Below are positions 6,288 through 45,339 of a DNA stretch of 64,000 nucleotides, one piece after another. Position 1 is the stretch's first letter. The number at the start of each line of letters is the position of its first letter. This stretch comes from Albifimbria verrucaria (taxonomy: Eukaryota; Ascomycota; Sordariomycetes; Hypocreales; Stachybotryaceae), in assembly GCA_020081605.1 (NCBI GenBank), contig JAHREC010000049.1, positions 3,844,001-3,908,000 of the forward strand. Reading direction: 5' to 3'. The notes beneath the pieces were generated by a model. It was not told the DNA's origin. It was given only the letters and a program-made list of their open reading frames with translations, and made no database searches. The translations under genes and the position numbers were made by a program.

Positions 6288-7432
6288 ATGATTGCATCAC
6301 CTTCCCTAATCAGCCTACCATTGTTTCTGGCTAGCTGTGTTCTCGGAGACAGCTTGTTAGGATTCAAGGTAGCACCTGAAATTGAGACCCGAACACTCGA
6401 CGAGATTCACAAGGCAGCTCTCGCTGAAGGCGGCGTTGTCACTCTTTGGCATGGAGGCGATGAGCCGAATCAACAAGATGCGCTGAAGCAGGCATTTGAG
6501 CAACGCTTCCCGGCATGACACTTAATGTTACAGTGGACCTCTCCAAGTACCACGACGCAAGACTGGACCAGCAGATCGCCACTGGCAAGGTGTCAGTCGA
6601 CAGCATCATTCTCCAAACGGTTCACGATTACCCTCGTTGGGCTGACGAAGGTGTGCTGTTGAATTACGCTCCGGTGGGATTTGAGGCAATCAACGATGCT
6701 GTCAAGGACTCTTCATCAGCAGCTTACTATGGACTCTTCTATTTCTTATGGCAGACCATTTACAACACCGACAAGCTGGGAAATATCTCAATTGTGGAAT
6801 TTGACGATTTCCTCAAGCCCGAGTTAAAGAACAAACTGGTGTTTACCTATCCCAACGACGACGATGCAGTTTTGTTCGCTTTCGAACTTATGTAAGATAT
6901 CGTTACAATTGGATATTCAGGTCGTATCTAACAAATTGATAGCCTTCAACAGTATGGGATCGAATGGTTTGATGCTCTTCTGAAGCAGAATCCTAGATGG
7001 GTCCGCGGCACTGCCACTCCATCTGCTCTGCTCACATCACCTAATGAGACCGTTGCGGCTACCTTTACCAGCTTCTATAACTTCAATTCCACTCAACGCA
7101 TTAAGACGTCGTTTCCGACCAAGGCCCAATTTGTGTCGTGGCCCCAAACTGGGGCAATCTTAAAGGACGCGCCTCACCCGGAGGGCGCGAAACTGCTGCA
7201 CAACTACTTGCTGTCTCCAGAATATCAAGTCAACACTGGCTGGCCTATCCGCTACGACGTTCCTCTGGACAAAGGCTTTCCTCTTCCTCCAATTCAGGAG
7301 GTCAACTCCACGAACCCGACAACATTTATCAAATGGATGGCGAACCGTGAACGGGTTGAGAGGCTGCGATTTTGGTTCGAAGACCGTATTGGCTCTGCAC
7401 AGGGTCTCAGTCCTCTTCATGACGATCTTTGA
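6288..7432 (+). CDS. Bacterial-type extracellular solute-binding protein (ABC Fe3+-transport periplasmic component-like)
   Basis: About 364 residues in two exons, 6288-6891 and 6943-7432. The start at 6288 gives a signal peptide (MIASPSLISLPLFLASCVLG). The body matches the COG1840/SBP_bac_6 type of substrate-binding protein. Landmarks are VVTLWHGGDEPNQQDALKQAFEQ, DSIILQTVHDYPRWADEGVLLNY, the hinge region FLWQTIYNTDKLG and KLLHNYLLSPEYQ. Fungi lack the ABC importer that such proteins serve in bacteria, so the role is unknown; ligand scavenging outside the cell is inference. The frame breaks at 6512-6513, where RFP should run into GMTLNV; one missing G in CCCGG explains it. With that base the exon phases fit exactly. 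Probably an old bacterial acquisition, now with an intron. Confidence 0.8.
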
Positions 7433-16989: not shown

Positions 16990-19000
16990 TCACATGCTCG
17001 CTAGACCCATGAGAACCTGCTTGAACGGGTCCACTGTGGTCAGGACAACCGTCATGACGCCAAAGATGGTCATGGCCAAGGCTGCGTAGGGCGCGGCTCG
17101 GCTTTTGGTTGCGTAGAGGTAGGCGACACCCATGGCGGCGCCGTTGATGCCCACAGTGATACCCGCTGCAATGGTTGCCGGGCTGTCGCCGAGGAGTTGT
17201 TCGAAGCTCTTGCGGACGATACGGGGTTGGTGAGGTACTTGCTGTCGCGCATGGACGCGGCCGAGAGGTACCATTTCGATATCGTCAACATCTGGACCAG
17301 CCTGTTGTGATGTTAGTGGCGCGGAAGCAGGAGCGGGAGCTGGGGCCGGAGCCGGAGCCGGAGCAGGAGGTTGGGTGGGGTTTTGGTCAACACTTACACC
17401 TAGCCTATGAAGCACGAAGGGGTACATGAGCTGCCCGAGAATGCCGTTGCTGACAACCAGTGCCGCGTTCACAGCGACGCTGCCGCCGACGATTTGCATG
17501 GCCGGCTTAGACAGCGCCAAGGTGACGGAGCGGGCAGAGAAGGCCAGAGCCTCGGGAGCGGCGATGCCCATAAGCTTGCCGGCAAGTGCGCAGAGGAAGA
17601 CGTTGGCAACGGCGGCGATGATGGAGATGATGACTGTGCAGAGGCCCGCCATGCTGAAGAGCTGGTGACGGCATTCGTAGAGCTTGAAGCCCCAGACCAA
17701 AAGGCCGCATTCAAGGAGGGAGAGCGCAGCATCACCGGCACCAAACCATCCCGTGGGGTTGAGAGGAATGGTGTTGCCAGTGACCTTTGCTGTCCAGAGC
17801 GCGTAAAGGGTGAGCCGCCGCTGAAGATCTTCAGGATGTCAGCCAGAGGGGACCGCGCATGATGGCCACCTTGGTTCTCGTGTAAGCCGTTAGCAAAAGG
17901 GTGGTGAAGAGGACAGGGTTCAAGAGAGTGACGATGATGTTCTTGCCACGCGGTTGAGATGCCATCCAAGACGATGTCTTGAAGTGCTTCTGAGCGCACA
18001 CGCACAACATCCATATGAACCAGACCCAAAAGCCATCAAGAAGGCGGTGATCCTTGGTGACCATGGCGACGGGAAGGCCGAGAGCGAGAATGCCAAACAG
18101 AGCCGTGGGAATGGGAAAGGCGCTGTTTCCGGAGCCAATGCGTTGGGGAGTGGAAGAGTTGGAGCTGCAACTTCGTCTGCGTTGGCAACAGCCGGGTCTG
18201 CTAGGGGCGCGGGTTGAGGACAGGACTGGGAGGCCGGGGTGTGCAGTCGAGATTCTTTGTCGTCGACGGTGCTGCCACGGTCAGGAGTCGAGTCGCCCTG
18301 AGCCGTCGTGCTGCCAGAGGCATCAGACGTGCTCCAGTTGCTAGGCGTGCGCGAAGCAACAGTAGCGATGATGACCAGAAGACCAAACGACAGGAGGAAG
18401 AAAACAGTCCAGGAGGCAAAGTTGGTGAGAAGAAAATTGGCGATGATTCGGGCAATCTCGCCAGGCTTGAGCATCTGAGTTTCATCGAGCTTGACAAGTG
18501 GAATTGGGAAGCCCAAACCGAGGTGCGCGTTGATGAAGTCGACCTTGGCCTTGATATGGGAGACGTAAAAGGCTTCAGTTGTCTGAGAGGATGAGTGAGC
18601 GGCTATCATGGCGCCAAAGACAAGAATCATGCCCAAGATTGAGGAGAAGAATTGGACGTGGGCGCGCGAGAGCGGCACGCTCAAGCCCCAGATGACCAAT
18701 TCGCTGACGAGGTAGATGGCAAAACTGACAGTAGATCAAGCGCATAGATGAGCGCATTGCGAAAGCGAGCTTTCCAGAGGGAGACAAGGTCAAAGTCGCC
18801 GTGTAGCGACCGGATGCATCGACAGCCATCACGGTCTCGACCACGGGAGTTGAGGATGCGGTTTGGAGGAGGCTGACGAGGGAGCTGTCGACCAGCGAAG
18901 ATAGCTCAACATGGAGGAGAAAAGGCCGGGCCAAAGCGGGCCGGGACGCAGGACTGGGAAAACTGGAAAAGCAGGAGAATGGAAAGGCAAGAGGACTGAT
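16990..19000 (-). CDS. LrgA/LrgB-family integral membrane protein (PLGG1-like)
   Basis: Stop at 16990-16992; the start is not resolved and lies somewhere near 18850-19100. The N-terminal half shows LrgA-like membrane segments (NALIYALDLLSV, IYLVSELVIWGLSVPLS, FFSSILGMILVFGAMIAAH, SWTVFFLLSFGLLVIIATVA), then a polar Ser/Pro/Ala loop. The C-terminal half is LrgB-like: FSARSVTLALSKPAMQIVGG, VSNGILGQLMYPFVL and GITVGINGAAMGVAYLYATKSRAAPYAAL. Plant PLGG1, of the same family, exports glycolate/glycerate from plastids; the fungal role is not known to me. The frame breaks at short runs near 17805-17807, 17848-17851, 18145-18148 and 18721-18724. A Pro-Ala repeat (about 17309-17394) may be an intron read through in frame. 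Confidence 0.65.
17325..17375 (+). repeat. GGAGCC-type minisatellite
   Basis: Tandem GGAGC(C/A/G)G units, read on the minus strand as a Pro-Ala repeat. They lie between a gtaagt donor (about 17394, minus) and an acaacag acceptor (about 17309, minus), so they may be intronic. Confidence 0.55.
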
Positions 19001-24127: not shown

Positions 24128-26046
<1,919 letters not shown>

Positions 26047-26774: not shown

Positions 26775-27610
26775 TCACGCCTTGAGAATCTTGACCAGCT
26801 CAGCAACGATGGCATCTCCTGCTTCTGCGGTGCCCGTGTTGCCGCCCATGTCCTTGGTTCTCAGCCCGGCGTCGATGGCGGCGCGGACCGCATCCTCGAC
26901 GATTTTAGCCTCGTGGGTAAGATTCAGAGAGTACCGGAACATCATGGCCACGGAAAGGATGGTGCCAATGGGATTCTAGAAATGATGTCAGCTCTGTACT
27001 TGCAGTGAATAGATATGAATCGCCCGAAACGGGTTCTTGACGTACGACAATCCCTTTCCCGGATATGTCCGGCGCGCTACCTGTCATCTGCGTTAGTGAC
27101 TGATATCTACATAGGGGCTCGAGTGGAGGATAGGAGTCTTACCATGAATCGGCTCATAGATGGAACGCAGTGGAGAGCTCGGAATCCCGCAGAGACTCGC
27201 GCTCGGGAGGAGGCCGATGCTTCCAGCTATGGCGCTCGCCTCGTCGCTGAGAATATCGCCTGAAAACTCGTCAGCTAAAACGACTTCGAGGTGGACAAGG
27301 GGCTTCGCTCACCTGCCAAGTTGGGCGCTATCATAACGCCATTCAGCTGCCTCGGGTTCTTGACCATGATCATGGCCGCGCTGTCAATAAGCTGATGCTC
27401 GACCTTCAGCTCTGGAAACTCGTTTTTGAAGACCTCATCAACCACGCGACGCCAGAGTCTGCTTGTCGCCAGCACGTTCGCCTTGTCCAGCGAGATGACC
27501 CGCGATTCTCCCCTAGTCCTAGCCAAGAAGCCACCCATCCGCGCGATACGCTCCATTTCTGGTTTCGTATAAACAGCAGTGTCATCCGAGCCAAGAGGTG
27601 GACCTCTCAT
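26775..27610 (-). pseudogene. 3-isopropylmalate dehydrogenase (LEU2-like), 5'-truncated fragment
   Basis: C-terminal half of a leucine-pathway dehydrogenase (beta-decarboxylating family). Clear blocks are [101 protein letters not shown] and GDAIVAELVKILKA. Introns lie near 27312-27259, 27141-27075 and 27045-26977. The N-terminal half, with the catalytic Arg/Tyr region and ELTGG motif, is not found upstream on this strand; sequence past about 27640 is unrelated and has stops. So this is a truncated copy, not the working housekeeping gene. Copies of leu2-type genes do occur in fungal metabolite clusters, and this one sits next to the RiPP genes, but a role for it is speculation. Confidence 0.75.
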
Positions 27611-28382
27611 CCATTGCGAAGATTGTTGGCTGTTCGTCTATGGACGATCTCGGGGTTCCGAATACTGCGGTCAGCATACAGGCTCCACTCGTTGCTATCA
27701 CACTGCATATCGTTGAGATAGGAAATAGATCTTAAGGTTACATTGTTTTGGAGGGGAAAATGCATTGCCCCGGGAACGTCTGGGTTACTACCCTGCAAAC
27801 GATATGCAACCCTTGTGTGCGCATTCTTGCTCGAGTTTGTGGAGTATACTGTGTACATCCCATACCTAGTGACTTTGAGACAGGGCTGTGGAGCTTCAAA
27901 AGTTCAATGCATAATGATTGTGACTCTGATGAACTAGTTTAGGTGCCATGGCGTGATCATGATTCTATCTCGGCCCTGTTTACTGCGTCTTGTACATCGG
28001 CATCGTCCTGTGGCTACCTGAATCACGAGTGCACATCATGAATATTCTCACTATGCCGAAGACTCCCCAGATGGAACATTCCAGCAAGTTGAAGTTGAAG
28101 AGACAATATTTTGTCCTACTAACATGCATACCCAAAATGTCTCTTATCCACCTACTAACCACGGGACAGTTGTCATGTACATTCGTTCAAAATTGCACAG
28201 GCCTGTCCGAAGTACAAGGTGAAACAGGTAACTGGAAATGCGGTGGTCTACGTGAACCTAACTAAGAACCCTCAATCCTGATCTAAGAGTTATTGAGAAA
28301 AACCACTCTGAATTCGTTGAGAGTTGAGATCAGGGAAGAGCGGATTGGCTGGGCCTGGCCTAGTTGACCCAAATATTCTGCC

Positions 28383-29148
28383 TCACTCTGAATCTGTGTT
28401 CAATGCTACTCCAGCCTCTGTATCACGGCCGGGATCTAAAATAATGTTGCCGCAGTGTTTGACGTGTCCCTCACTGTCTGATCGCGGTTCCACCATCTTT
28501 CCATTAAACCGTGCCCTGTGTTCTTTCCTCCAGTAAAAGATGCAATGAACGACATGCCAATGACCGGTCATATGGAATCTTCCATTAGGATCACCGGCCA
28601 TTTTGGCAATCTCCTCAACACTGATCTCTTTGGTATGTGCGGAATCAGTCCAGTAAGTCCATTTGCCATCGACTCCTGGCCCAGAACGCTCAAATTCTTC
28701 TGTCAACTCGTCATCCCGACAGTGTTCAGGAAGCCAAGCAGCGGCCAGCGAGTCATACTTGCAGCCCAAAGCTAATGCTTCTTCGATGGACTTACCACAA
28801 TCACAGGACCGAAGTTCAAGTGCATTGTGTTCTTTAGCTGACACTTCTCCTTTAAATGGACATGTTCATGGGCACGCGTTAGTGGCTGAAACAAGCTGAT
28901 CAGACCGGAGATTGCAAATGCAATCAAGATCAAATCTTTCACAGTAGAAAGTGAAGGCTTGAGCCAATTTCTGGAAAGTATTTCAGGGTGCTTCGAGAAA
29001 TCGTTGGAGGAAACCGAAGAGCTATCCGAGTTGTCGTTAATGAGGGATTGCCCTTCTTGGCCTCCTTTGAGCCTATCACTATATGTCAGTCTCTTGCTTT
29101 ATAAAACATATAGATTATGAATTGTCACCATTTATATTTCGATGCCAT
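28383..29148 (-). CDS. UstYa-family (DUF3328) oxidase A of the RiPP locus
   Basis: About 238 residues: exon 1 29148-29129, intron, exon 2 29078-28383. Type II membrane topology: a polar N-terminus, one membrane segment (VKDLILIAFAISGLISLF), then the lumenal domain. Family hallmarks are RSCDCGKSIEEALALGCKYDSLAAAWLPEHCRDDE and two HxxHC motifs, HVVHC (in TGHWHVVHCIFYWRKEHRARFNG) and HVKHC. UstYa proteins cyclise ribosomal core peptides oxidatively in ustiloxin-type pathways; the His/Cys motifs are thought to bind the metal. One frame break near 28848-28852 (TTT one short) lies between the membrane segment and the Cys motif. With it the length is exactly 239 codons. It shares the minus strand with oxidase B and lies about 2 kb from the precursor gene. 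Confidence 0.85.
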
Positions 29149-29815
29149 TATGATAATCTTAACTTTGGATTTGAGTCTAATGCTTGAAGAAGATGTGGGA
29201 GTAGAAGTTACCCGTTGCACTGGGGCTTTGGGGGTAGAGACTTAGACGGTCTCAAATAATTGCATAAACACTCAGGGATGTTCAAGAACATGTGGCAAGC
29301 GCCCGACCCCTCCTTAATCATCGAATGAGCCGAGTCAGCTAGCTAACCAATCCCCACTCCCACTCCTACCTGGATGGATGCATATGGGTCAGACATGGGC
29401 GACGCTGCAGCGCTGTGGCCGAGTCATTCAAGTTACATCGAGCTTATTATCCTGTGTCATCTGAGGATCAAATCAACGTCGGGCACAAGCTAGAAGTTGA
29501 GCTTGAGCATCTCTCTACCTTCTGAAAATTTCCAAAGGAAAATACCAGGATACGCAGAGTTTCCGTCAAGTGTTTCTTAACGAATTTGCCTATCGGTCAG
29601 TTTCTAAATTCCAAAAGGTCATCACTTTGAATTATTTCATGAATCTTACAGTACAACATTGAGTTACTTGAAGTCATTGTGGTCCTTTCTATTGATTTAT
29701 AGCTTTCAAGTTTTACGACAACTTATAGTTCAATTTTTCTCTCACAAAAGTGGTATGCTCTCTTAGGGAGAACATGCTCTTAACAGTTCGATTCGAAGAC
29801 AACCATTTATCTTCT
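29149..29815. other. Intergenic spacer between two UstYa genes
   Basis: AT-rich, contains the promoter of oxidase A; no coding frame supported. Confidence 0.4.
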
Positions 29816-30484
29816 TCACTTTAACATAACGCACTTATGGTGAGAGGCTTTGATTCTCGTATTTTGTGCTTTCCAATCTTCAAACAATGCCGTGTTTGCA
29901 CAATGCATCGTATGAGTGAACTCTGCAACAGTCTCCACGACTGGTTTGTTGAGAGTCAACGCATGGTGTAGCAGCTCCCAAGTGTACATGCAATGCATGA
30001 CGTGAAACTGGTGGTTTGTCCAAACATGAGGAGTATGTTTCAAAACCTCTATGTCTTGTGGTAACTCTTTCGTAAGATTGGAGTCTGCGTACCACTTCAA
30101 TCCACCACGCTCCTGGGCTTTCTCCCAATAACGGTTGAAGATTTCCTCATCAAAGCACTCGGGTGGTTGCCATGAGTAATTGAGGACATTGAATGTGCAA
30201 CCTAGTGCAGTAGCTTCTTCTGGGGTTGAACCGCAATCATTGGTAAACCCACTGGATGAATATTTCGGACCCAAATCGAGAGTTGTGAAAGTCAAAACGC
30301 TGACGATGATGACTATGATCACAGACACCGTAAGACGTATTGCAGTAGAAGAGAAAATAAATTGACGAAATCGCGATTCCGTCACCTTGCTTAGTGAAGA
30401 CTTTTCTTTGAGGTCAAGCTCGACAAAGTCAAGAGCGGTTATGGTCTCTTGATCACTTTCCTCTGAGCTGGTTGAACGAGGCAT
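29816..30484 (-). CDS. UstYa-family (DUF3328) oxidase B of the RiPP locus
   Basis: 222 residues, single exon, unbroken. Polar acidic N-terminus (MPRSTSSEESDQE), a membrane segment at about residues 45-68 (SSTAIRLTVSVIIVIIVSVLTF) and then the conserved domain. NDCGSTPEEATALGCTFNVLNYSWQPPECFDEE corresponds to the Cys-Gly start of the family. The two motifs are HVMHC (in TNHQFHVMHCMYTWELLHHAL) and HTMHC. Spacing between the motifs is about 33 residues, normal for the family. Predicted oxidative tailoring of the repeat peptide encoded 0.7 kb away and transcribed divergently from it. Paralogous to oxidases A and C but clearly diverged; which reaction each performs cannot be told. Confidence 0.9.
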   Translation of the reverse strand: MPRSTSSEESDQETITALDFVELDLKEKSSLSKVTESRFRQFIFSSTAIRLTVSVIIVIIVSVLTFTTLDLGPKYSSSGFTNDCGSTPEEATALGCTFNVLNYSWQPPECFDEEIFNRYWEKAQERGGLKWYADSNLTKELPQDIEVLKHTPHVWTNHQFHVMHCMYTWELLHHALTLNKPVVETVAEFTHTMHCANTALFEDWKAQNTRIKASHHKCVMLK

Positions 30485-31219
30485 GGTAAAAGTGACTGCT
30501 CAAAGTTTCTCTAAGTCAGATTCAGAGTAAGAAGGAGCTAGAGCATGATGAAAACCATGGATGAGGAGGACGACGGAAAGGTATCCCTCCGCTTTGAAGA
30601 AGTCCTATGTCAGGCGAGAGGGTTAATCAACATAGTGGTGTGTGAAGCATACCATCCAAGGAGGAGCCGGATGATGCCTCGCAGATCAATGGCGGTGTGT
30701 GTGAGATATTGAAGCTAAATGCTACAGGAATGTCGTACGATCTGCTGTAGCAGGAAGGTGCATTGTGATGAGGAGGCTTTAAGCGTATGTGGCAAGCATA
30801 TCTGACTGCAGTGTTACGCATCTACACATCCACCATGATCACATCCGGAAGCGGAAACTGCAGCTTTGGACAGGGTCACCAGAAAATAGTATCACAGTGA
30901 ACATTCCATTGTCAACCATACTGTGCAGAGGTCCGTTGTCATCTTGGCCCTTTGCAGTTTGGTATATGCACAAGGATGGGTATTGCATCTGATGTCGTAC
31001 CCTCCTGGCCCTCACCACCATCGCGACCTGTGGGTCCTCGAGTTTAGTCTTTTCAACTACTTTGAATATCTCATTGCACAGAGGTCTTGTGGTTTAGGCA
31101 GACTAGGAGTATAAGTCTCAGACATTCCCACATTAAACATACTCCAGCACATCAACCCAAACTGCTAGTCTGGATCACCTACCCTCAATATTTAGATCAT
31201 ATTCTTTAGCATCTTCATA
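30485..31219. other. Divergent promoter region of oxidase B and the precursor gene
   Basis: 735 bases separating head-to-head starts at 30484 (-) and 31220 (+), so both genes could share control elements. No TATA box at a good distance for the precursor. No gene seen. Confidence 0.5.
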
Positions 31220-32000
31220 ATGAAGTTCCTTCTTTACGCTGCTTTGGCCTCTGTGGTTATTGCTGCTCCTCTTGTTCAGCTCAACAATGAAGCCTGTAAG
31301 TATCACACTTTCATAATTGATGTATGTCAGCATATGAAAACTTACGTCTCTTTAGTGAAAGCTCGCGAGCCTCAGTTCCAGGTTGGTTAAACCTTTTAAA
31401 TACCAGAGAGTCTACTAATTCAAATTAGCCGTTCAAGGCCGATGAGAAGGATGCCGGCTACAGGCGTGACCCTCAATTCCAGCCATTCAAGGCAGACGAG
31501 AAGGACGCTGGCTACAAGCGAAGCTCCCAATTTCAGCCTTTCAAGGCTGATGAAGAAGAGACTGCTTATAAGAAGCGTAACCCTCAGTTCCAGCCGTTCA
31601 AAGCTGATGAGAAGGACGCTGGCTACAAGCGAAGCCCTCAGTTCCAGCCGTTCAAGGCAGACGAGAAAGATACTGCCTACAAGCGTGATCCTCAGTTTCA
31701 GCCTTTCAAGGCTGATGAGAAAGATGCCAGCTACAAGCGCAGCCCTCAGTTCCAGGTTAGTTAGTCCTTCAAAACACAGAAATTTATACTAACCAATTCA
31801 GCCCTTTAAGGCTGATGAAAAGGAGATTGCTCACAAGCGTGATCCTCAGTTCCAGCCTTTCAAGGCTGATGAGAAGGACGCTGGTTACAAGCGAACCCCC
31901 AGTTTCAGCCGTTCAAGGCTGACGAGAAGGAAGCTGGATACAGGCGTGACCCCAATTTCAGCCATTCAAGGCAGATGAGGAGAAGGTAGATCAGTACTAA
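31220..32000 (+). CDS. Repetitive secreted RiPP precursor (dikaritin/UstA type), Kex2-processed
   Basis: About 209 residues from four exons: 31220-31295, 31356-31381, 31429-31755 and 31802-32000. A signal peptide (MKFLLYAALASVVIAAP) and a short leader end at KAR. About ten repeats of the type xPQFQPFKADEKDAGYKR follow. Each ends in a basic Kex2 site (KR, RR or KKR), so mature peptides of about 16 residues are expected. QFQPFKADE is invariant in the repeats read in frame; the first residue (D, S, N, E or T) and positions 12-16 vary. Two runs (31896-31900 and 31950-31953) are each one base short and put the last two repeats out of frame; a stop then follows shortly. Such precursors feed ustiloxin, asperipin, phomopsin and epichloecyclin pathways, and the neighbouring UstYa genes support the same role here. 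Product and bioactivity unknown. Confidence 0.85.
31368..31990 (+). repeat. 54-base coding tandem repeat, about 10 units
   Basis: Direct repeats of 54 bases (57 in the third unit) within the precursor gene, with strong nucleotide identity in the CAGTTCCAGCCTTTCAAGGC core. Two units are split by an intron at the same codon boundary. Confidence 0.9.
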
Positions 32001-33743
32001 TAAGCCCCAAGAAAGCCATACTGTGGAAAAAATGTCTCTGGAGAGGTAGCTGCGTGACTGCAGAAGGACAGCTTACTGATATGGGTTGAATATGTAACTG
32101 CACAGACACTCGTTACCCCAGGAAAGTAAGAGTGGGAGCAGTGCAACTGTTTCTTGGATGATGTCACTCTTTTGGACTAAAGATAGGTTAAGGATTGATT
32201 AACAGTGTTGCCTTAAGTACAATGATGTTTTTATTCGTGTGGAATTAGATTCCTTGTCGTTTTTGGTGTGAATTTTTGACGAATCCAACGAACGATATTT
32301 CAAACCAGCGGCCCTACTACTATCTTATGCGGTACCCCTAGACGATGCATGTTTGGCTCACAAACATTTTGATTTATGGGTAGTGTCATGTATGCGTCCA
32401 AAGTAAAATCAGCCTCCACAACATTGGAAGAAGGAGGGTTTAGATCAAAATATGCTTGATCCCACGCTTGCACTGGATATCATGTATCAGAGCCGCAGTA
32501 AGCGATGGCTATCGTGTCACTGCAAAGGCTCTTTCCAGTTAGTAGTAAGAGATCCGGTCAAATATCTTCAACAGGACTATGCGGAGGATGTACAGTCTAT
32601 GCATGACAAGCCCTCGTGGAGGGATGCGTATGCATATGCACATGCACTCTAACTAAGCCCGTGTGCGGCACAGGTCCTGGGATGCCGCCTTGATTTACAA
32701 ATCTCATAATGACATGGTGCATGATTTGACTGTTTTTGGAAAATGGTCTCTGTGGACCTCTTCAACGTTATATCCGCTTCTAATTGGTCCCATTTGCCTA
32801 GATAGGTTTTGAAAAACATTGTAAACATGTGATGATCAATATCCGAGAAGGACGTACGAAGGTGAGGGTTCTCTTTGCAAAACATCATAATAGAGACTTG
32901 CGTAAGTAATGATGCTCTAGATGACTCGGTCCTACATCGCCAGCTTGCTTATCTCGTTTATGACATAATAGCATTCACCCACAGGCCCAAGATTTGAATA
33001 ATCCTGGCAACTGCTTTTTTGCTCAACATAGGTATATTGGTGCTTGGTTGATAAGATCCTAAACTGGACCAGGTCTCACATGTGGAGAAAGAGGGTCTTA
33101 TGCGTTGCGACCTTGGTCCATCTCTAGATGCAACTTCAAGCATCGCGTCACTCAATAATGAACATGGTACGCCATGCATTAGAACAGGGCTTCCCGCCTG
33201 AATAACATCGATGAGTCCGGACAAGACTCGGTGTCACTAAAATGTGCCGAAGGCGAGAACACGATAACAAAGGCTGGTGTCTATGTCAGCCCGTTGCCCC
33301 CATGCTGACTGTTTCCAATAGCAACCCACCTTAGTCCCGCACTGTTGATCATTAGATATCGCCATGTACACAGTGCTAGACATCTGGGTCTGGCCGTTAC
33401 AGCAGATCCGCCTGGGAGACCAGAGCCTCAGTGAGGACATATCGTGCCACGCCATTGTCCGACTGCAGGCGTCTAAGGTAGGATCCGATGTGACAACAAT
33501 GTGGGCTCACCAACACAATGCATAAGTGCCTCCTGTACCATAACTAGTTACTTGTGCCCTCGGAGATGTTACGTTTGTCATTCGGTTTTCAAGTCTAGCG
33601 GAGAAATGTATGGAGACACATGGGAGCCCCATCTTAGACATACCCTCCGACATTGATTCTTCCACTTCATTTTTTGAACCAGAATTTACCATATTCTTGA
33701 CCAGGAATCTAAAGTAATTCAAGCAAAGTCTCATTACGAAACC
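32001..33743. other. Region between precursor and oxidase C, 1.7 kb
   Basis: Short open frames on both strands (for example minus 33455-33237 and 33224-32958) without domain, start context or family likeness. It may hold decayed coding sequence; nothing supported as a gene. Confidence 0.4.
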
Positions 33744-34498
33744 ATGGATGACAGTCGGTGCCCAACACCAGAGAAGGAGCCATTCCTTCTGGGTTTACCC
33801 GCTAATATACATCGTCGAAAGGCCTGGAGCCCAAGATTTGTCGCAGCCTTTTGGTCTGCGGGTCATATTCTTCTCTTCACAATTCTCGGTGGCATCCTAG
33901 TTCTCACTGTTCGAGACACCATCATCAAAACAAATAATATGCCATCTTCTCTCCCAAAGAGGACAGAATTCGGAGGCCTGCCAGTGCAGTACGATGACCC
34001 CAAGGTCCATATGTCATTTGTCCCTCCACTGGTGGTGCCGCAGCAGCCCGGAAGGCTGGTTGCGGGTTCGATCTCTTTGCCAATGGATGGGCACCTGGCC
34101 CGTGTTTTGACGCGGAGAAGCATGACTATTTTGTCAATCAGCGTGACTACTACTTTTGGGAAGACAAAGCCAAGAATCACCGGGTACATCAAGACAAGCT
34201 GCTCGAGGGAAACTTAGAATACCCAGAGCTGTTTGTTAGCTTTGAGGAACACTACGAGCACTGTCGCTACTTGCTCAATGGGACAAAGCGCTATGCCCAC
34301 AACCCAACTCTGGGAGTCTTGGATATTCACATGGATGAGGAGCACATGAATCATTGCATCGACTTTTTGAAAGAGTCACGAGACCCATACAACTTGGAAG
34401 AAGGAGTCATAGCGTACTTTGGGCACAGGAAATGTTTCCTCCCCGTTCTGATATCAATTCTGAGCTCTAATGGATGGAAAGCTTGCCATCACGTATGA
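33744..34498 (+). CDS. UstYa-family (DUF3328) oxidase C, divergent member
   Basis: About 251 residues, single exon with one break. N-terminal cytosolic part (MDDSRCPTPEKEPFLLGLPAN), membrane segment (AGHILLFTILGGILVLTV), then the lumenal part. GCGFDLFANGWAPGPCFDAEKHDYF is the counterpart of the Cys-Gly region, and two HxxHC motifs follow: HYEHC (before RYLLNGTKR) and HMNHC (before IDFLKE). The break is a CCC at 34047-34049, one base short; with it the gene is exactly 252 codons. It is transcribed in the same direction as the precursor and closes the locus on the right. More distant from A and B than these are from each other, suggesting a different reaction. Confidence 0.8.
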
Positions 34499-36297: not shown

Positions 36298-37741
36298 CTA
36301 CGTTTCAAGGGCTAACTCTGTATACACCGCTTCTTTGTCATTCCTCCTCATCTTGTATACACCCTCCCGGATTGCCGGCGTCCATGTCATGGCGATAGCA
36401 ACCACACCCACAGCAACGAACCAGCACACCATGTAGATAGAGCTCGTCTCGGCGAGTTTAAGCCCACTGGATCCATGTCAGAAGTGTTTGTGATGTATGA
36501 AGAATGAATGGAACTTACAGTCCAGTGTTGACCCATGCAAACACAATAACTCCTCGTCCAACCCAGATATGGAAGTGAGAAATCAAGGTCCGCTTGTGAA
36601 GCTTCACGTAGTAGACATGATGATAGTATCCGAGAAGTGGTTGAAGAGCCAGAAAGAACGTGACCAGTGTCCCTAGGGTCAAGTGCTGAGAAATAATGGT
36701 CCGCGGCTTCATCTATCACCGAGTTAGCATGGGCAATGATGGAATAAACACCTTAAATACCTCAAAGTTGCCCCAAGATCTTATAATTGCTAGCGTAGCC
36801 GAGGAGAAAGCGATCATTACTGCTGCCATTTGGAGGATCCAGTGTACTTGGAAGCCTTTGGGTAGGCCACTACGGAGGTACACGACGGCAGTAGGCATCA
36901 AGACTGTGAATGAAATGAGCATCGAGGTACCGTGATAACTATGCCACTCATTGCTCTGCGGCTTGCCACCGTCCAGTCCAACCGTTTGTCGTCCATTATC
37001 GACAAACTCCGGCGGAGTGGGTGGAGCGGCGTTGGACTGAACCATGCCCATGTTGAGTGAGAAGTGCTCTAAAGCGAGGGGTTAGCAACGAGGTCATGGA
37101 CTATCCATTTCTAACCCACCGTATACTGTATGCAAGCCAAGAGGCACTGCTTTGTCTGTAGTCTGTAGTCTTACGCGGGATTGCGTAGCATAGATCATGG
37201 GCTGCGCTGCGGACTTGAAATCTATGGCATGTCCACTCCATTGGTCACATGAATAGCAGACGATTGATATATCATAATACTCGTCCTGAACAGACACGCT
37301 GAGGACATCGTAGGCTGGGGCATGCTCGGCCGGTCTAGGTGGGGAATGTCCCCTGTTCCCAGTCAACATCTACACACGATTTAGACTGTGGCGGCCTCAA
37401 ACTTACGTTGTGGATCTTAGGCTGACGGTCGCATCGTCAGAGTCTGCTGATGATGGGTAGAAGACAAACATTAATGCGCCCGACATGGTTTGGCCGGTAC
37501 CCACGGCGCTCCATCCCAATCTCCTAGAGAACTTAGTGGACGTGCGAATGTATAAATCATGACCACCTGATGAAGAGTTCCGGTAGGAAGAAAAAGTAAA
37601 GCAAACGTCGATTTCGAGCTCACTGTCTGTGTTGCAAAACTGCGCTGGCGATGGTCCACGCCCGGACCCGTGAGCAAGGGCAAGCCCAAGAAAGCAGAAA
37701 GACAAAAGAGCCAAGAAATTCATCTTGCTTCGTGAATTCAT
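36298..37741 (-). CDS. DOMON-cytochrome b561 membrane oxidoreductase
   Basis: 412 residues from five exons: 37741-37407, 37352-37120, 37068-36761, 36712-36519 and 36466-36298; all phases fit and nothing is broken. A signal peptide (MNFLALLSFCFLGLALA, after MNSRSK; the ATG at 37723 is an alternative start) is followed by a DOMON/CDH-cytochrome-like domain: FCNTDSELEIDVCFTF, GWSAVGTGQTMSGALMFVFY and IVCYSCDQW. The b561 part follows (HSYHGTSMLISFTVLMPTAVVYL, FQVHWILQMAAVMIAF), with spaced His residues for two hemes and HFHIWVGRGVIVFAWVNTGL. The C-terminus is a final membrane helix and short tail. Family members move electrons across membranes, often reducing iron or feeding secreted oxidases; the partner here is unknown. 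It lies 1.8 kb from the RiPP locus and is probably not part of it. Confidence 0.9.
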
Positions 37742-37798
37742 ATGTAACCAAGTGTGGGAGGGAGTTAGTGAGAGGAGTTTGTTAGAGGGGCAGGGACT

Positions 37799-37806
37799 TA
37801 TTTATA
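37799..37806 (-). promoter_or_regulatory. TATA box of the DOMON-b561 gene
   Basis: TATAAATA on the minus strand, 58-65 bases upstream of the ATG at 37741. Confidence 0.5.
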
Positions 37807-38387
37807 TCCTGTGGCCAAGCACCAGTCTATGCATGATCGACTCACCCAGTGCTTGAGTAATCATGCATGCAACTTGGCCTACATTCCACAACCATCTGTT
37901 ATAAACTTTTGCTCCTGCAAATAATTTTAATTAATTGATCTTGTGAGAGGAATCTTGCCATTTGCAACAAACCAGCCCGGCAAATGTAATGGTCAATACA
38001 TGCTGTAACCTGATATCAGGAGACTGGCTCCATAATCTACACGAATTCTCACTGGCTGCCTGATCTGTATGTTGAGGCAACATGTCGGAGGCCGACCATT
38101 CACTTTGTGTAGGCCAACAGCTGTCTGCCGCGTTGCATTTGTTGCATTGAAGGCAGCTAATAAATGGAGGTTTGAGAGCGTCTAAGAATGTGGTTCGCCA
38201 ACTGTTCTGCCTAACGAGCCTCTTCGAGCCCAAGGTAAATAGATGCGCCAACCCTCATAAATTCCACACAGAAATGCACTTTCCTCACGGGTATCTCATT
38301 CTCTGTAGTTTCCATCTCCTCTATCAATCATACACCTACCGCAAATCCAGCATTTCTATCTTATCCCTCTCATTCATCTCGTTCACC

Positions 38388-41300
38388 ATGGCATACGATC
38401 AGGAAATGACCGCAATAGTCGCCTGACAAAACTTTTCCACGCTGTCACCACAGGCAAACAACAGCTTAGAACACTTAATGACTCCAAGAACTTTCTCAAT
38501 GCCTGTACACTTCAATGCGTACAAAATTCGCCCAGTTATTGCGTCGAAATACTACTCTCTCGTGCTGGCGGCCTCAATTCTCTTAGGTCTTCTGTGCGTA
38601 ATGGTCTCAACCACGATTTCATTGTGGGCTCGACATTGCCATTCATTGCAAAACTGTCCAACCAAGATGTGGCAAGTCTTAACAATGGCGAGTTCCTTGC
38701 GACTGTTGTACACGCAATTGTGTACCCTTGCAGTTTCTGGGATGCACTCCTGTTAGCACATCGGAATGGCCACATCTTGGAAGACAATGCCGAGGCGTTC
38801 GGATGGCTTTGTCTCCAAGTCGCAAAAGCCCATGCGAATGAGAATGACTTGGTCAAGCATTTTTCGGACCTCGACGTTGTAATCCAAAGCAAGGCTCTGC
38901 TCAACTCTCCAGCCCAAGAGGTTCGGAGTTTCCACCATCGCATCGAAAAAGTCTTACAGTCCCGCAGCTCCAATAAGACGAAGATTGTACAATCGGATCT
39001 TGATTCACCAGGAGGTCGACACGATAACGACTTTGCAGACTTCCGACAGATCTGCTTGCTACCTACCAATGATGAAGTGACTTCCAAAACTTCTCCTTAC
39101 TTGCAGCGTTTGAATGACGTATTTCAGCAATCAAATGATTTGAATGCGCAAGACTACCTCGATTGGCTATTTCGTCTTCTCAGGAAGACATGCTAGCAGA
39201 GCTACGAGAAGACTTCCAGGCCGCTCTTAGCCCCACCACCAAGAAAAGGAAACCACTCATATTGGGGGTTGAGATACATTGGATGTGACCTGGGAACACT
39301 TACAAGAGCACTTCCCTGTGCTGTCAAAATGTCTTGTGTGGTTGGGCTTGGATTTCTCGCCAAACTGCCCCAACAAAAACGTGGGGCTTGGCTCAAGGAT
39401 AATAAAAGTTTCCTGAAGCATCAATCTTTGGGTGTACTTTGCAATTCAACAGACATAGTTGCATTTGGAACACTACGTCGAGATGAAGATAATCTTTACG
39501 TAGCCCACCTGTACTCAGTATTCAAATCGATAACGAGACAGCTTTGGGTAATGCGGTGAAATACTTGAGTCAACCAGACACGAGCTCTCTCAGCTTCATT
39601 GTCATCAACACTGCTACCTTTGCATATGTGCCAATTTTACAGCAATTACAAAAATGAGAGAGCTCCTTTGAACCGCCACTTGTTTAGTCTTCGCAGTGAT
39701 GACGGTGACGACGACGACCTTAATCTATCGAGTAAGCTTTCGGCATTCACTACTCGTTTGAGTAAAGCTGTACAATCAGACGAGGCAATAGCTTTGCCGT
39801 TTCAACTATCTGGAGAATCAGTGCGAGTTCGAGGAGCACAGCTTGAATCCCTATTAAATGGCTTGACCAACCCGCTAGCCCAGATTCAGGGTCCTCCAGG
39901 GACAGGAAAGTCGTTTATTGGTGCCTTGCTTGCCCGAACGATTCTTGAGTTCACAAATCACCGCATTCTCGTCTTGAGTTACACGAATCATGCTGTGGAC
40001 CAATTTGTAAAGGATCTTTTGACATTGGCGTGAAAGCGGAGATAGTCGTAAGACTAGGTTCAAAAAGCTCTGATGCCACTGCTTCAACAAAAATTGAAAA
40101 TTACATGAAAGACAAGTCATATGGGTTGAAGAAAGAGGAATGGAATATAATCAGTTCCATGAGGCGAGATATGGTAGATCTTGTGGGAGAACTTGAAGCT
40201 GCCAACTCTTCTCTCAAACGTCAGCAGCCAACTGCAAGCCAAATTTTGGACTACTTGGAGTTTTCAGAAAATCATAGTCATTTTTGGGACGCTTTTCAGG
40301 TGCCTCAAGTGGATGACGGGTTCGTGACAGTGACTAGAGATCAAAAAGAGGTGACTTCAGAACATCTTTACAATATTTGGCTGGCCGAGAAAATACCCCG
40401 GCATTTCAAGAACTGGTCAATCGTATGGCGCCGGATTGTCAACTCGTGTGGGAAATACCATTCGCAGCACGACATCAATTTCATGCTACTTGGATAGATT
40501 CCGTACGTAAAGAGCAGATAGCTGCGTTTGTCGAGTATGCTGCACAGCACAACAATCTTCAACGTCGAATCAGTAGCATTTTTGACGAACCCAAGAGACG
40601 AGTGCTTCGCGACAAAAGAGTCATTGCATGCACAACAACTGGAGCGGCCATGCACAAGTCGATTATTGATAGCACCAACCCAGATGTCGTCATAGTCGAG
40701 GAAGCTGGAGAAATTCTCGAAGCACATGTCGTAACTGCTCTGGGACCTCTAACGAAGCAACTCATTCTGATAGGCGACCACAAACAACTCCCCCAAAGGT
40801 GAACAATTACGCTCTTTCTAAGGAGAAAGGCGACGGATATGATTTGAATGTTTCGCTTTTTGAAAGACTTATTCGGCATGGAAATCTGTATTCAACCTTG
40901 CGCCAACAACATCGCAGTCATCCTGATATTTCTTCTTTTGCTCGAATGCTTGCGTATGAGAATCTTGAGGACATGCCGTCGACGCGCAGTCGAGAATCCA
41001 TTCGTGGGCTTGAAAGTCGAGTGGTTTTCGTTCATCATGAACATGCCGAGGAGAGTCTCGCTGGGACTCAGGAAAAACGAGACGCTATGATGAAGGAGAG
41101 CAAGAAAAACCTCTTCGAGGCTAAGATGGTTTTGAAGTTGGTCAAGTATCTAGGACAGCAAGGCTATAAAACTGACAATATAGTTATTCTGACGCCTTAT
41201 TTGGGGCAGCTGTCGCTCCTCAGAGAAATCCTCCGACAGGAAAATGATCCGTATCTGAACGATTTGGACTCTCATGAATTGATGAAAGCTGGTTTGATGA

Positions 41301-44300
41301 CTGAGGCAGCCTCTAAGCTAAACAAAAAGCCCATTCGTTTGTCAACAATTGGTAATGCAACCTACAGAACACATATATAATGCGTACTGACTCTGCCAGA
41401 CAATTACCAGGGAGAGGAAAGTGACATTGTCATTGCCTCTTTGACTCGAAGCAACAGCCGAGGCGACGTCGGTTTCCTCTCTGCTCGTGAACGCCTCGTC
41501 GTTCTAATGTCACGAGCTAGGAACGGAATCATCCTATTTGGAAATATGCACACTTTTCTCAAAAGCAAGAAGGGAAAGAAGTTTGGGAGCTCTATTTCCA
41601 ATCCCTGAAAGAAAAGGGTTTCTTGTTTGATGGGGTACCTGTCTATTGTGAACAGCATCCAGACCGGCATGTTCTGTTGAAGACCCCTGAAGACTTTGAC
41701 CTGCACTGTCCCGATGGTGGTTGTGCCGAGCAATGGTAAGCCATTCCTATGTCAAAAAGCTAGTCATTGACTCATCATCCAGCGATAACACTCTAAAATG
41801 TGGCCACAAATGTAAACGTCGATGCCACCGTCTGCAAGACCATACCAAGGTAGGGTGCACAAAGATACTGTCGCGAAGGTGCAGTCGTGGCCATGACGAG
41901 AAGATACGTTGTGGCCAGGAGGCCCAAGGATGCAAGCTGTGTAAGAAAGAAGACGAGGAAACCAGACGAAGATTGAAGCGCGATATTGAGCTGGAAAGAA
42001 AAAGACAAGAAGCCGAAGACAAGTATCGAAAGCAACGCCAAGAGATTGAAGACGAAATGGATCTTCTCCAACGCCAAATGAAATACGAGCAGGAGGAGCA
42101 AGATCAGATGAAAGAGATCAAGCAAAAACAAGAAACCCTTAAAAGCTTAAAGCAAGCAAAGCTGCAAGCCGAAAAGACGAAGCAACAACGTGCAAAGGCT
42201 CCCGCAGTGGCAAACGCAGTGCCAGTATTTGATATTGGGTCAAGTGATGCCGCGTCAGAGTGGCAATACTTCAAAAACAACGAAGGCGCCACAAACGAGG
42301 CCCTTGACGAGCTGATGGGGATGATTGGGCTCGAGTCCGTGAAGAAGGAGTTCTTGTCAATTAAGACAAGTGTTGATACAAAGTTGAGGCAAGGCGTTTC
42401 ACTTTCCAAGGAGAGGTTCAGTTGTTCTCTTCTTGGAAATCCTGGAACTGGTAAGCTAGGAAAAACCTCTCGCTTGTAAGTTGGTGGTGCTAATTATTCA
42501 CAGGCAAGACAACCGTCGCACGAATTTGGGCAAAATTTCTTGTCATCGTCGGTGCTATTCCAGGACAAGCCTTTAAAGAAACCACTGGATCAAAGTTAGC
42601 AAGTGATGGCGTCAAAGGTTGCGAATCCCTTCTTGAAGGCATTAAGAATGAAGGCGGCGGTGTTTTGTTCATTGACGAAGCGTATCAACTTTCATCAGGC
42701 AATAGTCCTGGAGGAAAGGCTGTGCTAGACTTCCTCCTCGCCGAAGTCGAAAACCTTCGCGGTAAGATTACCTTTGTTCTCGCGGGATACAGCAAGCAGA
42801 TGGAATCCTTCTTTGCACATAATCCTGGCTTTCCCAGCCGATTCCCTATTGAAATGAAGTTTGAAGACTACGATGATAAGCAGCTCCTCAACATCTTCAG
42901 GTTGCAGCTCCACAACCAGTTTAAGGGACGAATGGGTGTTGAAAATGGCTCTGACGGCTTATATGCACGTATTGCTACGCGGCGCATTGGCTACTCCCGT
43001 GGAAAAGAAGGCTTTGGCAATGCCCGTGCTGTTGAAAACTGTCTCAGCAATATTTTGAAGCGGCAGGCAGATAGGCTGGGTCGAGAGCGACGGGCCAAAT
43101 TGAAACCAAACGACCTCCTCTTAACCAAAGAGGACATGATTGGACCTGAGCCATCAGGAAGCTTGCACAAAAGCAAAGGGTGGCAAGCTTTGCAATCTAT
43201 GACAGGTTTGTCCGAGGTCAAACAAACAGCCAAGGTACTATTTGATACTTTAAAGACCAACTACGAAAGAGAACTCGAAGAGGAGCCGTTGATTGAACTC
43301 TCGCTTAATCGTGTATTCGTCGGCAATCCTGGAACTGGTAAGACAACTGTCGCCAAGTATTACGGACAAATTCTCGTCGACTTAGGTCTGCTGTCGAATG
43401 GCGAAGTTGTCATCAAAAATCCTTCCGATTTTGTCGGTGCTCACTTGGGTCAATCAGAAGCACAGACTAAAGGAATTCTTGCAGCCACCGTTGGGAAGGT
43501 ACTTGTCATTGACGAAGCATATGGCCTCTACGGTGGGAGCGGCTCATCAGGGGAGGACCTGACACGAACATTTACAACACAGCCGTCATTGACACGATCG
43601 TGGCTGAAGTACAAAGCGTTCCTGGAGAAGACCGCTGCGTGCTACTTCTAGGATACCAGGACAAAATGGAAACCATGTTTCAAAACGTGAACCCGGGCTT
43701 GAGCCGCCGATTTCCCATGGCATCCGCATTTGTGTTTGAAGACTTCGATGATGATTCACTAATGAAAATATTCGATTTCAAACTGAAGAAGAGTGGCTTC
43801 CAAGCATCGGATGCGGGAAAACGTGTCGCTCTAGAGGTTTTAACACGTGCAAGAAACCGTCCACACTTCGGGAATGCAGGAGAGATTGATATCCTTCTCG
43901 ATAGAGCCAAAATCAGCCTTCAGAAACGAGTTTTTGCAGGTCAAGCAACGTACAAGGACATTTTCCAGGCTATCGATTTTGATGCAGATTATGACCGAGT
44001 CGAACGCTCCGGTACGAATATTCGAACGCTGTTCAAAGGAGATGTTGGTAGAGAAGCTCTCATAAAGCTCCTTGAGGGCTATCAAAAGCGCGTGTACGAT
44101 TGCAAACAATTAGACATGGACCCTGAAATTCCATTTAACTTCCTGTTTCGGGGCCCCTGGAACTGGTAAGACGTCTACGGCAAGGAAGATTGGCCAGGTC
44201 TATTATGACATGGGCTTCTTGTCCACTCCCCAAGTTGAGGAGTGTTCTGCCACGCAACTCATTGGGGAGTATGTTGGTCAGACTGGTCCAAAGGTTCAGC

Positions 44301-45339
44301 GTCTAGTTGAAAAGTCACTAGGAAGAGTTCTCTTTATTGACGAAGCGTACAGGCTGAGTGAAGGTCATTTCGCAAAAGAGGCATTGGATGAATTGGTGGA
44401 TCTAACAACAAAGCCCAAGTTCCAAAACAAGCTTATAATAATTTTGGCTGGCTACGTTCAAGACATCAACCAACTCATCTCCAGGAATCCGGGCATGACG
44501 AGTCGCTTCCCAGAGGTTGTGGATTTTGCACCGCTTGAACCAACTGCATGTTTCAAGCTCATCACCAAGCTTCTGGAGGAGAAAAGGAACATCTCGAGTC
44601 GAAAGGGAAGACTCTCGACATCACATGTCTTTCGAAAGCTCGTTCTGTGTTTCGATCCAATGTGGAGATGAAGCTAGAGAGCTTGTCCAAGCAGGAAGGC
44701 TGGGCAAGTGCTCGAGATATCCAAACTATTGTGAAGTCCATATTTCGTGGGCTTAATCTTAATCCCACGAATATAAGTGTTTCAGAGATCGATGTCGTAC
44801 GAAACATTGATTCGATGTACGTGGAAAGAGATGAGAGGATGCGAAATAAACTGGCAAATGCCCCAATGGTCCAAAACTCAGGCTTGATGCAAGACTCTGT
44901 CAATAAAGCTCCAGCGGCAAGCAACACGTCAGCCAATACTGCCGCTACAGCTGAAGAAAGTATAGATGAAGAAGAGGAAGAGGAAGACGTAGAAGCAACG
45001 GTAAAACCATCAAGTCGACTTGGTATCCGTGATGCAGGTGTAAGTGACGAAGTATGGGAGCAACTCCAACGCGATGCTGCAGAAGAAGACAGGAAAGAAA
45101 AGGAGTTGCAAGAGTTAAAACGAAAAGAAAAGACTGCCAGCGAGGCACAGCGGAAGATTCTGGTTCGACAGATTCTAGAAGAGGAGGAAAGGAGGAAGCA
45201 GGAAGAAGCAAGGAAGAAAAAGCTGATGGAGATGGGTCTATGTCCTATGGGCTTCAATTGGATCAAGGAGAGCACTGGTGGTTATCGATGTGGCGGTGGC
45301 TCACATTGGATATCAGATGGTGATGTAGGAACGCTCTAG
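38388..45339 (+). CDS. NFX1/ZNFX1-type SF1 helicase fused to three CbbX-type AAA+ ATPase modules
   Basis: About 2,270 residues with at least three introns (41354-41399, 41733-41779 and 42452-42504). The N-terminal helical region of about 480 residues starts MAYDQE. The UPF1-like SF1 helicase has GPPGTGKSF (39890), SYTNHAVDQF, VIVEEAGE (40698), LIGDHKQLPP, RQQHRSHPDI, TIDNYQGEESDIV and LMSRARNGIILFG. A cysteine/histidine NFX1-type segment (LKCGHKCKRRCHRLQDHTKVGC) follows, then a charged coiled coil (about 41945-42215). Three AAA+ modules of the CbbX/SpoVK class come next, each with Walker A (GNPGTGKTT, GNPGTGKTT, GPPGTGKTS) and B (FIDEAYQL, VIDEAYGL, FIDEAYRL). A second coiled coil and a short C-terminal Cys-containing motif end it. 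At least eight one-base contractions break the frame, for example near 38403, 39194, 39260, 40793, 41578, 44155 and 44592. Role unknown; relatives act in RNA surveillance and silencing. Confidence 0.88.

What the first reader, a model, noticed from the sequence alone, without database searches (positions are those of the whole stretch)
28383..34498. Minimal dikaritin-type RiPP locus with a new repeat peptide
Seen: a secreted precursor with about ten Kex2-separated repeats (QFQPFKADE core) and three genes for UstYa-family proteins, each with two HxxHC motifs. Known: this pairing defines ustiloxin/asperipin/phomopsin/epichloecyclin pathways, in which UstYa proteins cyclise core peptides. Inferred: Phe/Tyr residues of each 16-residue peptide are oxidatively linked. 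The repeat does not match any core I know, and no P450, tyrosinase, methyltransferase or peptidase is adjacent, so the three oxidases may do all tailoring.
Basis: partly seen in the sequence, partly recalled or inferred. Interest (0 to 1): 0.88.

Follow-up and report, generated by a model that had tools for sequence, protein, structure and literature searches.

The report
Fungal repeat peptide with oxidase trio
A fungal gene for a secreted protein made of ten near-identical peptide units sits among three genes for membrane proteins that look like distant relatives of copper enzymes known to reshape fungal toxin peptides, so the locus probably makes a new modified peptide that standard searches would overlook.

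Summary
A secreted, intron-split precursor (31220 to about 32000, +) carries 10 copies of QFQPFKADE, nine preceded by Pro and nine by a dibasic site. All 24 core differences from consensus are at third codon positions (pS 0.83, pN 0), so the peptide is under selection. Three neighbours each have one hydrophobic helix and two HxxHC motifs.

They are not ordinary UstYa proteins: none reaches the Pfam UstYa cut-off, and none of 17 #2-family members matches it at E 10. Profile comparison with shuffle controls supports distant kinship for #3 and a pooled family, not for #2 alone. Relatives of #2 and #3 share contig lengths in five cases, including Beauveria thailandica genes five tags apart. The precursor has no detectable relative.

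Best reading: a Kex2-processed repeat-protein RiPP locus, probably Ste13-trimmed to a 14-mer and oxidised by a diverged UstYa-like trio. "Dikaritin" is not established: no tyrosinase, methyltransferase or peptidase in the pieces scanned. Frame breaks in precursor, #1 and #3 look like assembly errors, directly supported for #3 only. Chemistry and function are inferred.

The parts
31220..32002 (+). Repeat precursor gene: signal-peptide-like N-terminus, 10 repeats of about 18 residues with invariant QFQPFKADE core; exons 31220-31295, 31356-31381, 31429-31755, 31802-about 32002
   Evidence: Reading frame changes before repeat 9 and again before repeat 10.
31382..31428 (+). Intron 2 (47 nt, phase 0), splits the first repeat between QFQ and PFK
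   Evidence: CTAAT site 33 nt into the intron.
31756..31801 (+). Intron 3 (46 nt, phase 0), at the same place in a later repeat; 73% alike to intron 2 over 49 nt including flank, so repeats were probably duplicated together with the intron
   Evidence: family D4; CTAAC site.
28386..29148 (-). UstYa-like #1: short first exon 29148-29129 and intron 29128-29079 (by eye), then one hydrophobic helix, HVVHC and HVKHC; one frame change near 28850 (by eye)
   Evidence: 33% identical to #2 over the matched part; PF11807 E 0.15, 12.3 bits against a cut-off of 25.
29819..30484 (-). UstYa-like #2: intact single-exon gene, 222 aa, one membrane helix, HVMHC and HTMHC
   Evidence: both HxxHC motifs invariant in 17 of 17 aligned sequences.
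33744..34498 (+). UstYa-like #3: one membrane helix, HYEHC and HMNHC; two frame changes in this assembly (near 34000 and near the end)
   Evidence: near-identical P0017 is in one frame across both places; PF11807 below cut-off.

Best explanation
This is a compact RiPP locus of the Kex2-processed-repeat-protein (KEP) type. The precursor enters the secretory pathway. Kex2 cuts after the dibasic sites, Kex1 trims the basic residues, and a Ste13-type dipeptidase removes the X-Pro dipeptide. This leaves a 14-mer beginning at the invariant core (QFQPFKADEKDAGY in the commonest form). Three single-pass membrane proteins with their double HxxHC site in the Golgi/ER lumen oxidise it, by analogy with the copper-dependent DUF3328/UstYa enzymes, most likely by hydroxylation or side-chain cross-linking at the two invariant Phe residues, the neighbouring Pro/Lys, or the C-terminal Tyr.

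Shown by sequence: repeats, processing sites, selection on the core, the double motifs, and distant kinship of #3 and the pooled family to UstYa. Supported indirectly: linkage of #2 and #3. Inferred: the proteolytic steps, the oxidation, its site, and that the three proteins act on this precursor.
For: Ten repeats with only synonymous core differences, pN 0 and pS 0.83. Pro before the core in 9 of 10 copies and a dibasic site before 9 of 10. The invariant block starts exactly where Ste13 would leave the N-terminus; XA/XP after Kex2 is the STE13 signature (PMC6339444).

Double HxxHC in all three proteins, in 17 of 17 for the #2 family, and in 13 of 14 for the #3 family, the exception being a truncated model. 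The #2 model has one membrane helix and each motif on its own helix, 158-177 and 189-200. This is the architecture described for CctR, whose motif binds two coppers (PMC12435403).

Profile comparisons against 60 column shuffles each: #3 family vs canonical UstYa, score 40.4, best shuffle 19.2; pooled family 35.1 vs 22.0; #3 vs #2 family 54.4 vs 25.2.

Five #2/#3 relative pairs share the longest-contig length, including Beauveria thailandica MY4824_004890/004885. In the same genome a #1/#2-type protein sits with canonical UstYa genes and another repeat array in L006.
Against: No protein reaches Pfam's UstYa cut-off, and none of the 17 #2-family members matches it even at E 10. The #2 family alone does not beat shuffled columns: 23.4, best shuffle 23.4. 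The precursor has no detectable relative among 4025 candidates, so synteny of the precursor with the enzymes is not shown. The shared contig lengths are indirect. The #3-family model is poor (pLDDT 48). Foldseek finds no solved structure alike. The precursor, #1 and #3 are frame-broken as assembled; only #3 has a relative that supports an assembly error. Tyr, the usual linkage residue, is not invariant here. The Ste13 spacer is unlike ustiloxin and phomopsin precursors.
Confidence: 0.68

Rival explanations
1. The precursor yields an unmodified linear signalling or defence peptide (alpha-pheromone-like processing by Kex2, Kex1 and Ste13), and the three double-HxxHC proteins act on something else.
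For: Pro after the Kex2 site in 9 of 10 copies. Le Marquer et al. say Ste13 is not predicted to process ustiloxin/phomopsin precursors (PMC6339444 section 16). Most KEPs have no DUF3328 neighbour (22% have one; PMC7329392 abstract). Only the enzyme pair, not the precursor, is seen elsewhere.
Against: The array lies between #2 and #3, and it is the only such array found in the 64 kb window. Umemura reports that almost no pheromone gene has DUF3328 neighbours. The genome has a separate alpha-pheromone-like precursor with WCYRPGQGCW repeats.
Confidence: 0.2
2. The locus is decaying: the precursor, #1 and #3 are pseudogenes of a former RiPP cluster.
For: Frame changes in the precursor (two), #1 (one, by eye) and #3 (two).
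Against: Both out-of-frame repeats keep the core peptide with no non-synonymous change. P0017 from a near-identical fungus is in one frame across both breaks of #3, although that record itself begins after the membrane helix. #2 is intact. Unrelated window genes (helicase/AAA 38309-45339, dehydrogenase and mutase-like pieces) also seem to change frame (by eye), which points to assembly indels.
Confidence: 0.08
3. The repeats form a structural or surface protein (a Rep-type, Kex2-cut wall peptide), with the enzymes unrelated or cross-linking it in the wall.
For: Short Kex2-cut repeats of this kind also occur in fungal wall peptides (recalled, not from a call).
Against: The core is short, charged and hydrophilic apart from two Phe, and the neighbours are double-HxxHC proteins.
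Confidence: 0.04

Closest known systems
Ustiloxin, phomopsin and asperipin-2a pathways (dikaritins; UstYa/DUF3328 with Kex2-processed repeat precursor)
   Same: Secreted multi-repeat precursor with dibasic sites beside genes for double-HxxHC membrane proteins.
   Different: Core unrelated, with no invariant Tyr; X-Pro (Ste13) spacer; no tyrosinase, methyltransferase or peptidase found in scanned pieces; enzymes below Pfam's UstYa cut-off.
Epichloecyclins (GigA precursor; DUF3328 protein in the cluster)
   Same: Kex2-type precursor with few accessory genes (GigA named in PMC7329392, DUF3328 in PMC12048977, passages; the small gene number is recalled).
   Different: Different core; three diverged enzymes here.
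CctR, copper-dependent DUF3328 hydroxylase of cyclochlorotine (PMC12435403)
   Same: One membrane helix, luminal domain, two HxxHC motifs on two helices (model of #2).
   Different: CctR acts on a non-ribosomal peptide; copper binding here is untested.
Ascomycete alpha-pheromone precursors
   Same: Signal peptide, Kex2 sites and X-Pro spacers before the repeats.
   Different: Core unlike the pheromone decapeptide; a separate pheromone-like gene exists in this genome; enzyme genes adjoin.

Membership tests
Kex2-processed repeat proteins (KEPs) | Secretion signal at the N-terminus | tested here: met
   Hydrophobic stretch from residue 3 by Kyte-Doolittle, mean 2.14; no dedicated predictor was run.
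Kex2-processed repeat proteins (KEPs) | Several near-identical repeats separated by dibasic Kex2 sites | tested here: met
   10 repeats, 9 preceded by KR/RR.
UstYa/DUF3328 (PF11807) | Match above the curated Pfam cut-off (25 bits) | tested here: not met
   #1 12.3 bits, #3 9.4 bits, #2 none (#1 and #3 as pieces); 0 of 17 #2-family members at E 10; 10 of 14 of the #3 family at E 10 or better, best E 0.012.
UstYa/DUF3328 (PF11807) | Two HxxHC motifs | tested here: met
   All three proteins; 17 of 17; 13 of 14.
UstYa/DUF3328 (PF11807) | N-terminal membrane helix and helical domain carrying each motif on a helix | tested here: inconclusive
   Seen for #2 (pLDDT 69 overall, block means 72-89 over residues 151-200); #3-family model too poor (pLDDT 48); #1 not modelled.
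UstYa/DUF3328 (PF11807) | Profile homology to canonical members | tested here: inconclusive
   #3 family and pooled family exceed all 60 shuffles; #2 family alone does not. The aligned stretch (40-58 columns) is the motif region only.
UstYa/DUF3328 (PF11807) | Copper-dependent oxidation | not testable with these tools
   Needs biochemistry.
Dikaritin gene cluster (five-gene sense quoted in PMC12048977) | Repeat precursor with leader | tested here: met
Dikaritin gene cluster (five-gene sense quoted in PMC12048977) | Tyrosinase, methyltransferase and transporter/peptidase genes | tested here: not met
   No tyrosinase, methyltransferase or peptidase among 34 neighbour ORF pieces scanned against Pfam. 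Transporter-like hits only far off: an LrgB-like membrane protein at 16990-17838 and a sub-cut-off solute-binding piece at 6932-7432. Small exons may be missed.
Dikaritin (later sense: a DUF3328 protein defines the class) | DUF3328 protein acting on the precursor | tested here: inconclusive
   Double HxxHC present, Pfam cut-off not met; action on the precursor untested.
Ascomycete alpha-pheromone | Kex2 plus Ste13 signature | tested here: met
   Pro before the core in 9 of 10.
Ascomycete alpha-pheromone | Pheromone core sequence | tested here: not met
   QFQPFKADE instead; a pheromone-like gene is elsewhere, L026.

The most novel reading that the evidence does not exclude
A RiPP family whose modifying enzymes are all of a diverged, Pfam-invisible branch of the double-HxxHC copper oxidases. 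Three of them cross-link a Phe-Gln-Pro-Phe-Lys core that lacks an obligatory Tyr, on a precursor matured like a pheromone (Kex2 plus Ste13). Surveys that require DUF3328 hits would have missed it and other clusters of its kind.
Probability: 0.3. Interest if true: 0.75.

Novelty: new variant of a known kind. Interest (0 to 1): 0.5.

Why it matters
Umemura's survey (PMC7329392, passages) called DUF3328 neighbours with Pfam at 1E-5; none of the three proteins, as scanned here, would pass that. If this branch really modifies repeat peptides, the reported 22% of KEPs with an oxidase neighbour is an undercount, and a profile built from the present alignments could find the rest. A core under complete purifying selection but without an invariant Tyr would also test whether these enzymes need Tyr at all.

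Tried and rejected

The precursor search against 5.8 billion proteins found none of 4025 candidates at E 10. Unspliced gene calls on fungal metagenome contigs would miss an intron-split gene, so this is weak evidence of absence, but annotated Beauveria and Metarhizium proteins are in that database too.

An alpha-pheromone role was considered and disfavoured. Electron supply: a gene with weak CDH-cytochrome similarity lies about 2 kb beyond #3. It was considered as a partner, since CctR's authors expect an accessory electron or Cu(I) donor, but there is no evidence of linkage.

The profile control for the #2 family alone failed. I therefore rest kinship on #3 (A4) and on the pooled family A5 (32 rows: #2 and 14 of its relatives, 12 relatives of #3, and pieces of #1, L006 and L007; P0001, P0016, P0029 and the window piece of #3 were left out). 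A2 used 9 ORFs chosen among the 35 PF11807 matches in this genome for open frames.
Full report
Observation. The window is G000:C36:3844001-3908000 of a 48.4 Mb assembly in 41 contigs. The precursor starts at 31220 and is split by three short introns. Its frame is open through eight repeats. Repeats nine and ten are each in another frame. The ten QFQPFKADE cores differ from the consensus at 24 nucleotides, all third codon positions; pairwise pS is 0.83 and pN 0. The five linker codons after the core do vary (pN 0.20, pS 0.71, 9 copies). In 20000 trials with the same number of random changes per copy, none kept all ten peptides. Introns 2 and 3 lie at the same spot in the repeat, both in phase 0, and are 73% alike over 49 nt with their flank, so the array probably grew with its intron. 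Exon 3 is therefore a symmetric exon that could be skipped in frame, which might vary repeat number (inference).

Processing. Pro precedes the core in 9 of 10 copies, and KR or RR precedes the unit in 9 of 10; the first copy follows KAR. Le Marquer et al. (PMC6339444; outline with abstract, Results part 2 and section 16 read) define XA/XP after the Kex2 dipeptide as a Ste13 signature, typical of alpha-pheromones, and state that Ste13 is not predicted for ustiloxin and phomopsin precursors. The present precursor therefore differs from those. Its invariant block begins exactly where Ste13 trimming would end.

The three enzymes. #2 is intact, 222 aa. Its 16 relatives are 47-98% identical, with named ones in Beauveria thailandica, Metarhizium anisopliae and M. 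acridum. Both HxxHC motifs are invariant in all 17 aligned. #3 has 13 relatives, including B. thailandica, a Xylariaceae sp. and a record labelled Photinus pyralis, a beetle, possibly fungal contamination. #1 is 33% identical to #2 over the matched part. All three have one hydrophobic helix. Pfam's UstYa model does not recognise them above cut-off, although it matches 35 places elsewhere in this genome. By profile comparison the #2 and #3 families are homologous over 111 columns (probability 93%), and #3 and the pooled family match canonical UstYa around the motifs (75% over 40 columns, 45% over 58). Sixty column shuffles each stayed well below these scores. The #2 family alone scored no better than its best shuffle (probability 3%). 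The AlphaFold model of #2 (mean pLDDT 69) has a membrane helix 38-70 and puts each motif on its own helix; the #3-family model is unreliable. CctR, a DUF3328 hydroxylase, has this architecture and a binuclear copper site formed by the HxxHC pair (PMC12435403; parts 1 and 2 of 3 read).

Linkage. In the two hit lists the longest-contig lengths coincide for five pairs of #2 and #3 relatives: 60108, 9062, 23418, 3922 and 188383 bases. The last pair is B. thailandica MY4824_004890 and 004885. Five of the 13 #3 relatives are thus probably on the same contig as a #2 relative. On the 3922-base contig the two genes take about 1.4 kb and leave at most 2.5 kb. I could not fetch these contigs, so the precursor's presence there is not shown.

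Genome context. All 35 PF11807 matches fall in 20 stretches of 10 kb that I fetched. Six of the 20 also hold a dibasic-separated repeat array: L006, L008, L011, L012, L014, L020 (found by script, then judged by eye). The window's locus is an addition that the Pfam search did not show. In L006 a #1/#2-type protein stands between two canonical UstYa genes near a repeat array. L007 also has one with canonical genes but no array was detected. The diverged branch thus occurs in ordinary clusters as well; here it is the only kind of oxidase seen.

Neighbours. In 34 neighbour pieces Pfam shows a fungal rhodopsin-type protein, GNAT, HET, a PPIase, an LrgB-like membrane protein (16990-17838), a dehydrogenase piece, AAA pieces, a DUF1996 protein, an AMP-binding enzyme, a GRF zinc ribbon and weak oxidoreductase matches at 62951-63907, and no P450, tyrosinase, methyltransferase or peptidase. 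The pieces are a selection; 54 ORFs of 150 aa or more are listed.

Frame breaks. P0017, from a near-identical fungus, is in one frame through both places where #3 changes frame in the window; its record begins after the membrane helix. The out-of-frame repeats keep their core, and other genes of the window also appear to change frame (by eye). Assembly error is the likely cause; for #1 and the precursor there is no relative to prove it. I did not restore any frame.

Known work. Umemura (PMC7329392; [quoted passage not shown] Her neighbour search used Pfam at 1E-5, which this locus would fail. The core string was not found in fungal papers: QFQPF gave one oat paper, PFKADE none (supplements not searched). 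PMC12048977 (passages) quotes both definitions of a dikaritin cluster; the five-gene one is not met here.

Verdict. A real, selected repeat-peptide locus with a diverged UstYa-like trio: a new variant of a known kind, with the chemistry unproven.

Noticed in passing
window 36387-37801 (-): Gene pieces with weak similarity to the cytochrome domain of cellobiose dehydrogenase (below cut-off) followed by a hydrophobic, b561-like piece (by eye; no Pfam match), about 2 kb from #3; a conceivable electron donor, not linked by any evidence.
   Followed up: partly
L006, L008, L011, L012, L014, L020: At least six other dibasic-separated repeat arrays beside Pfam-recognisable UstYa genes in the same genome, for example NQAGWGKR, VVADGFKKR and DAAWVFTGGNVKR repeats.
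   Followed up: partly
L026:1114-2109: Alpha-pheromone-like precursor with WCYRPGQGCW repeats.
   Followed up: partly
window 24316-25785 and 27275-27903 (-), 38309-45339 (+): Genes that look like a UDP-galactopyranose mutase (by eye; its pieces have no Pfam match), an isopropylmalate/isocitrate dehydrogenase piece and a helicase/AAA protein seem broken over several frames, suggesting frequent indel errors in the assembly.
   Followed up: partly
window 31429-31755: Exon 3 of the precursor is a symmetric phase 0-0 exon bounded by two similar introns; skipping it would give an in-frame precursor with six fewer repeat units.
   Followed up: no
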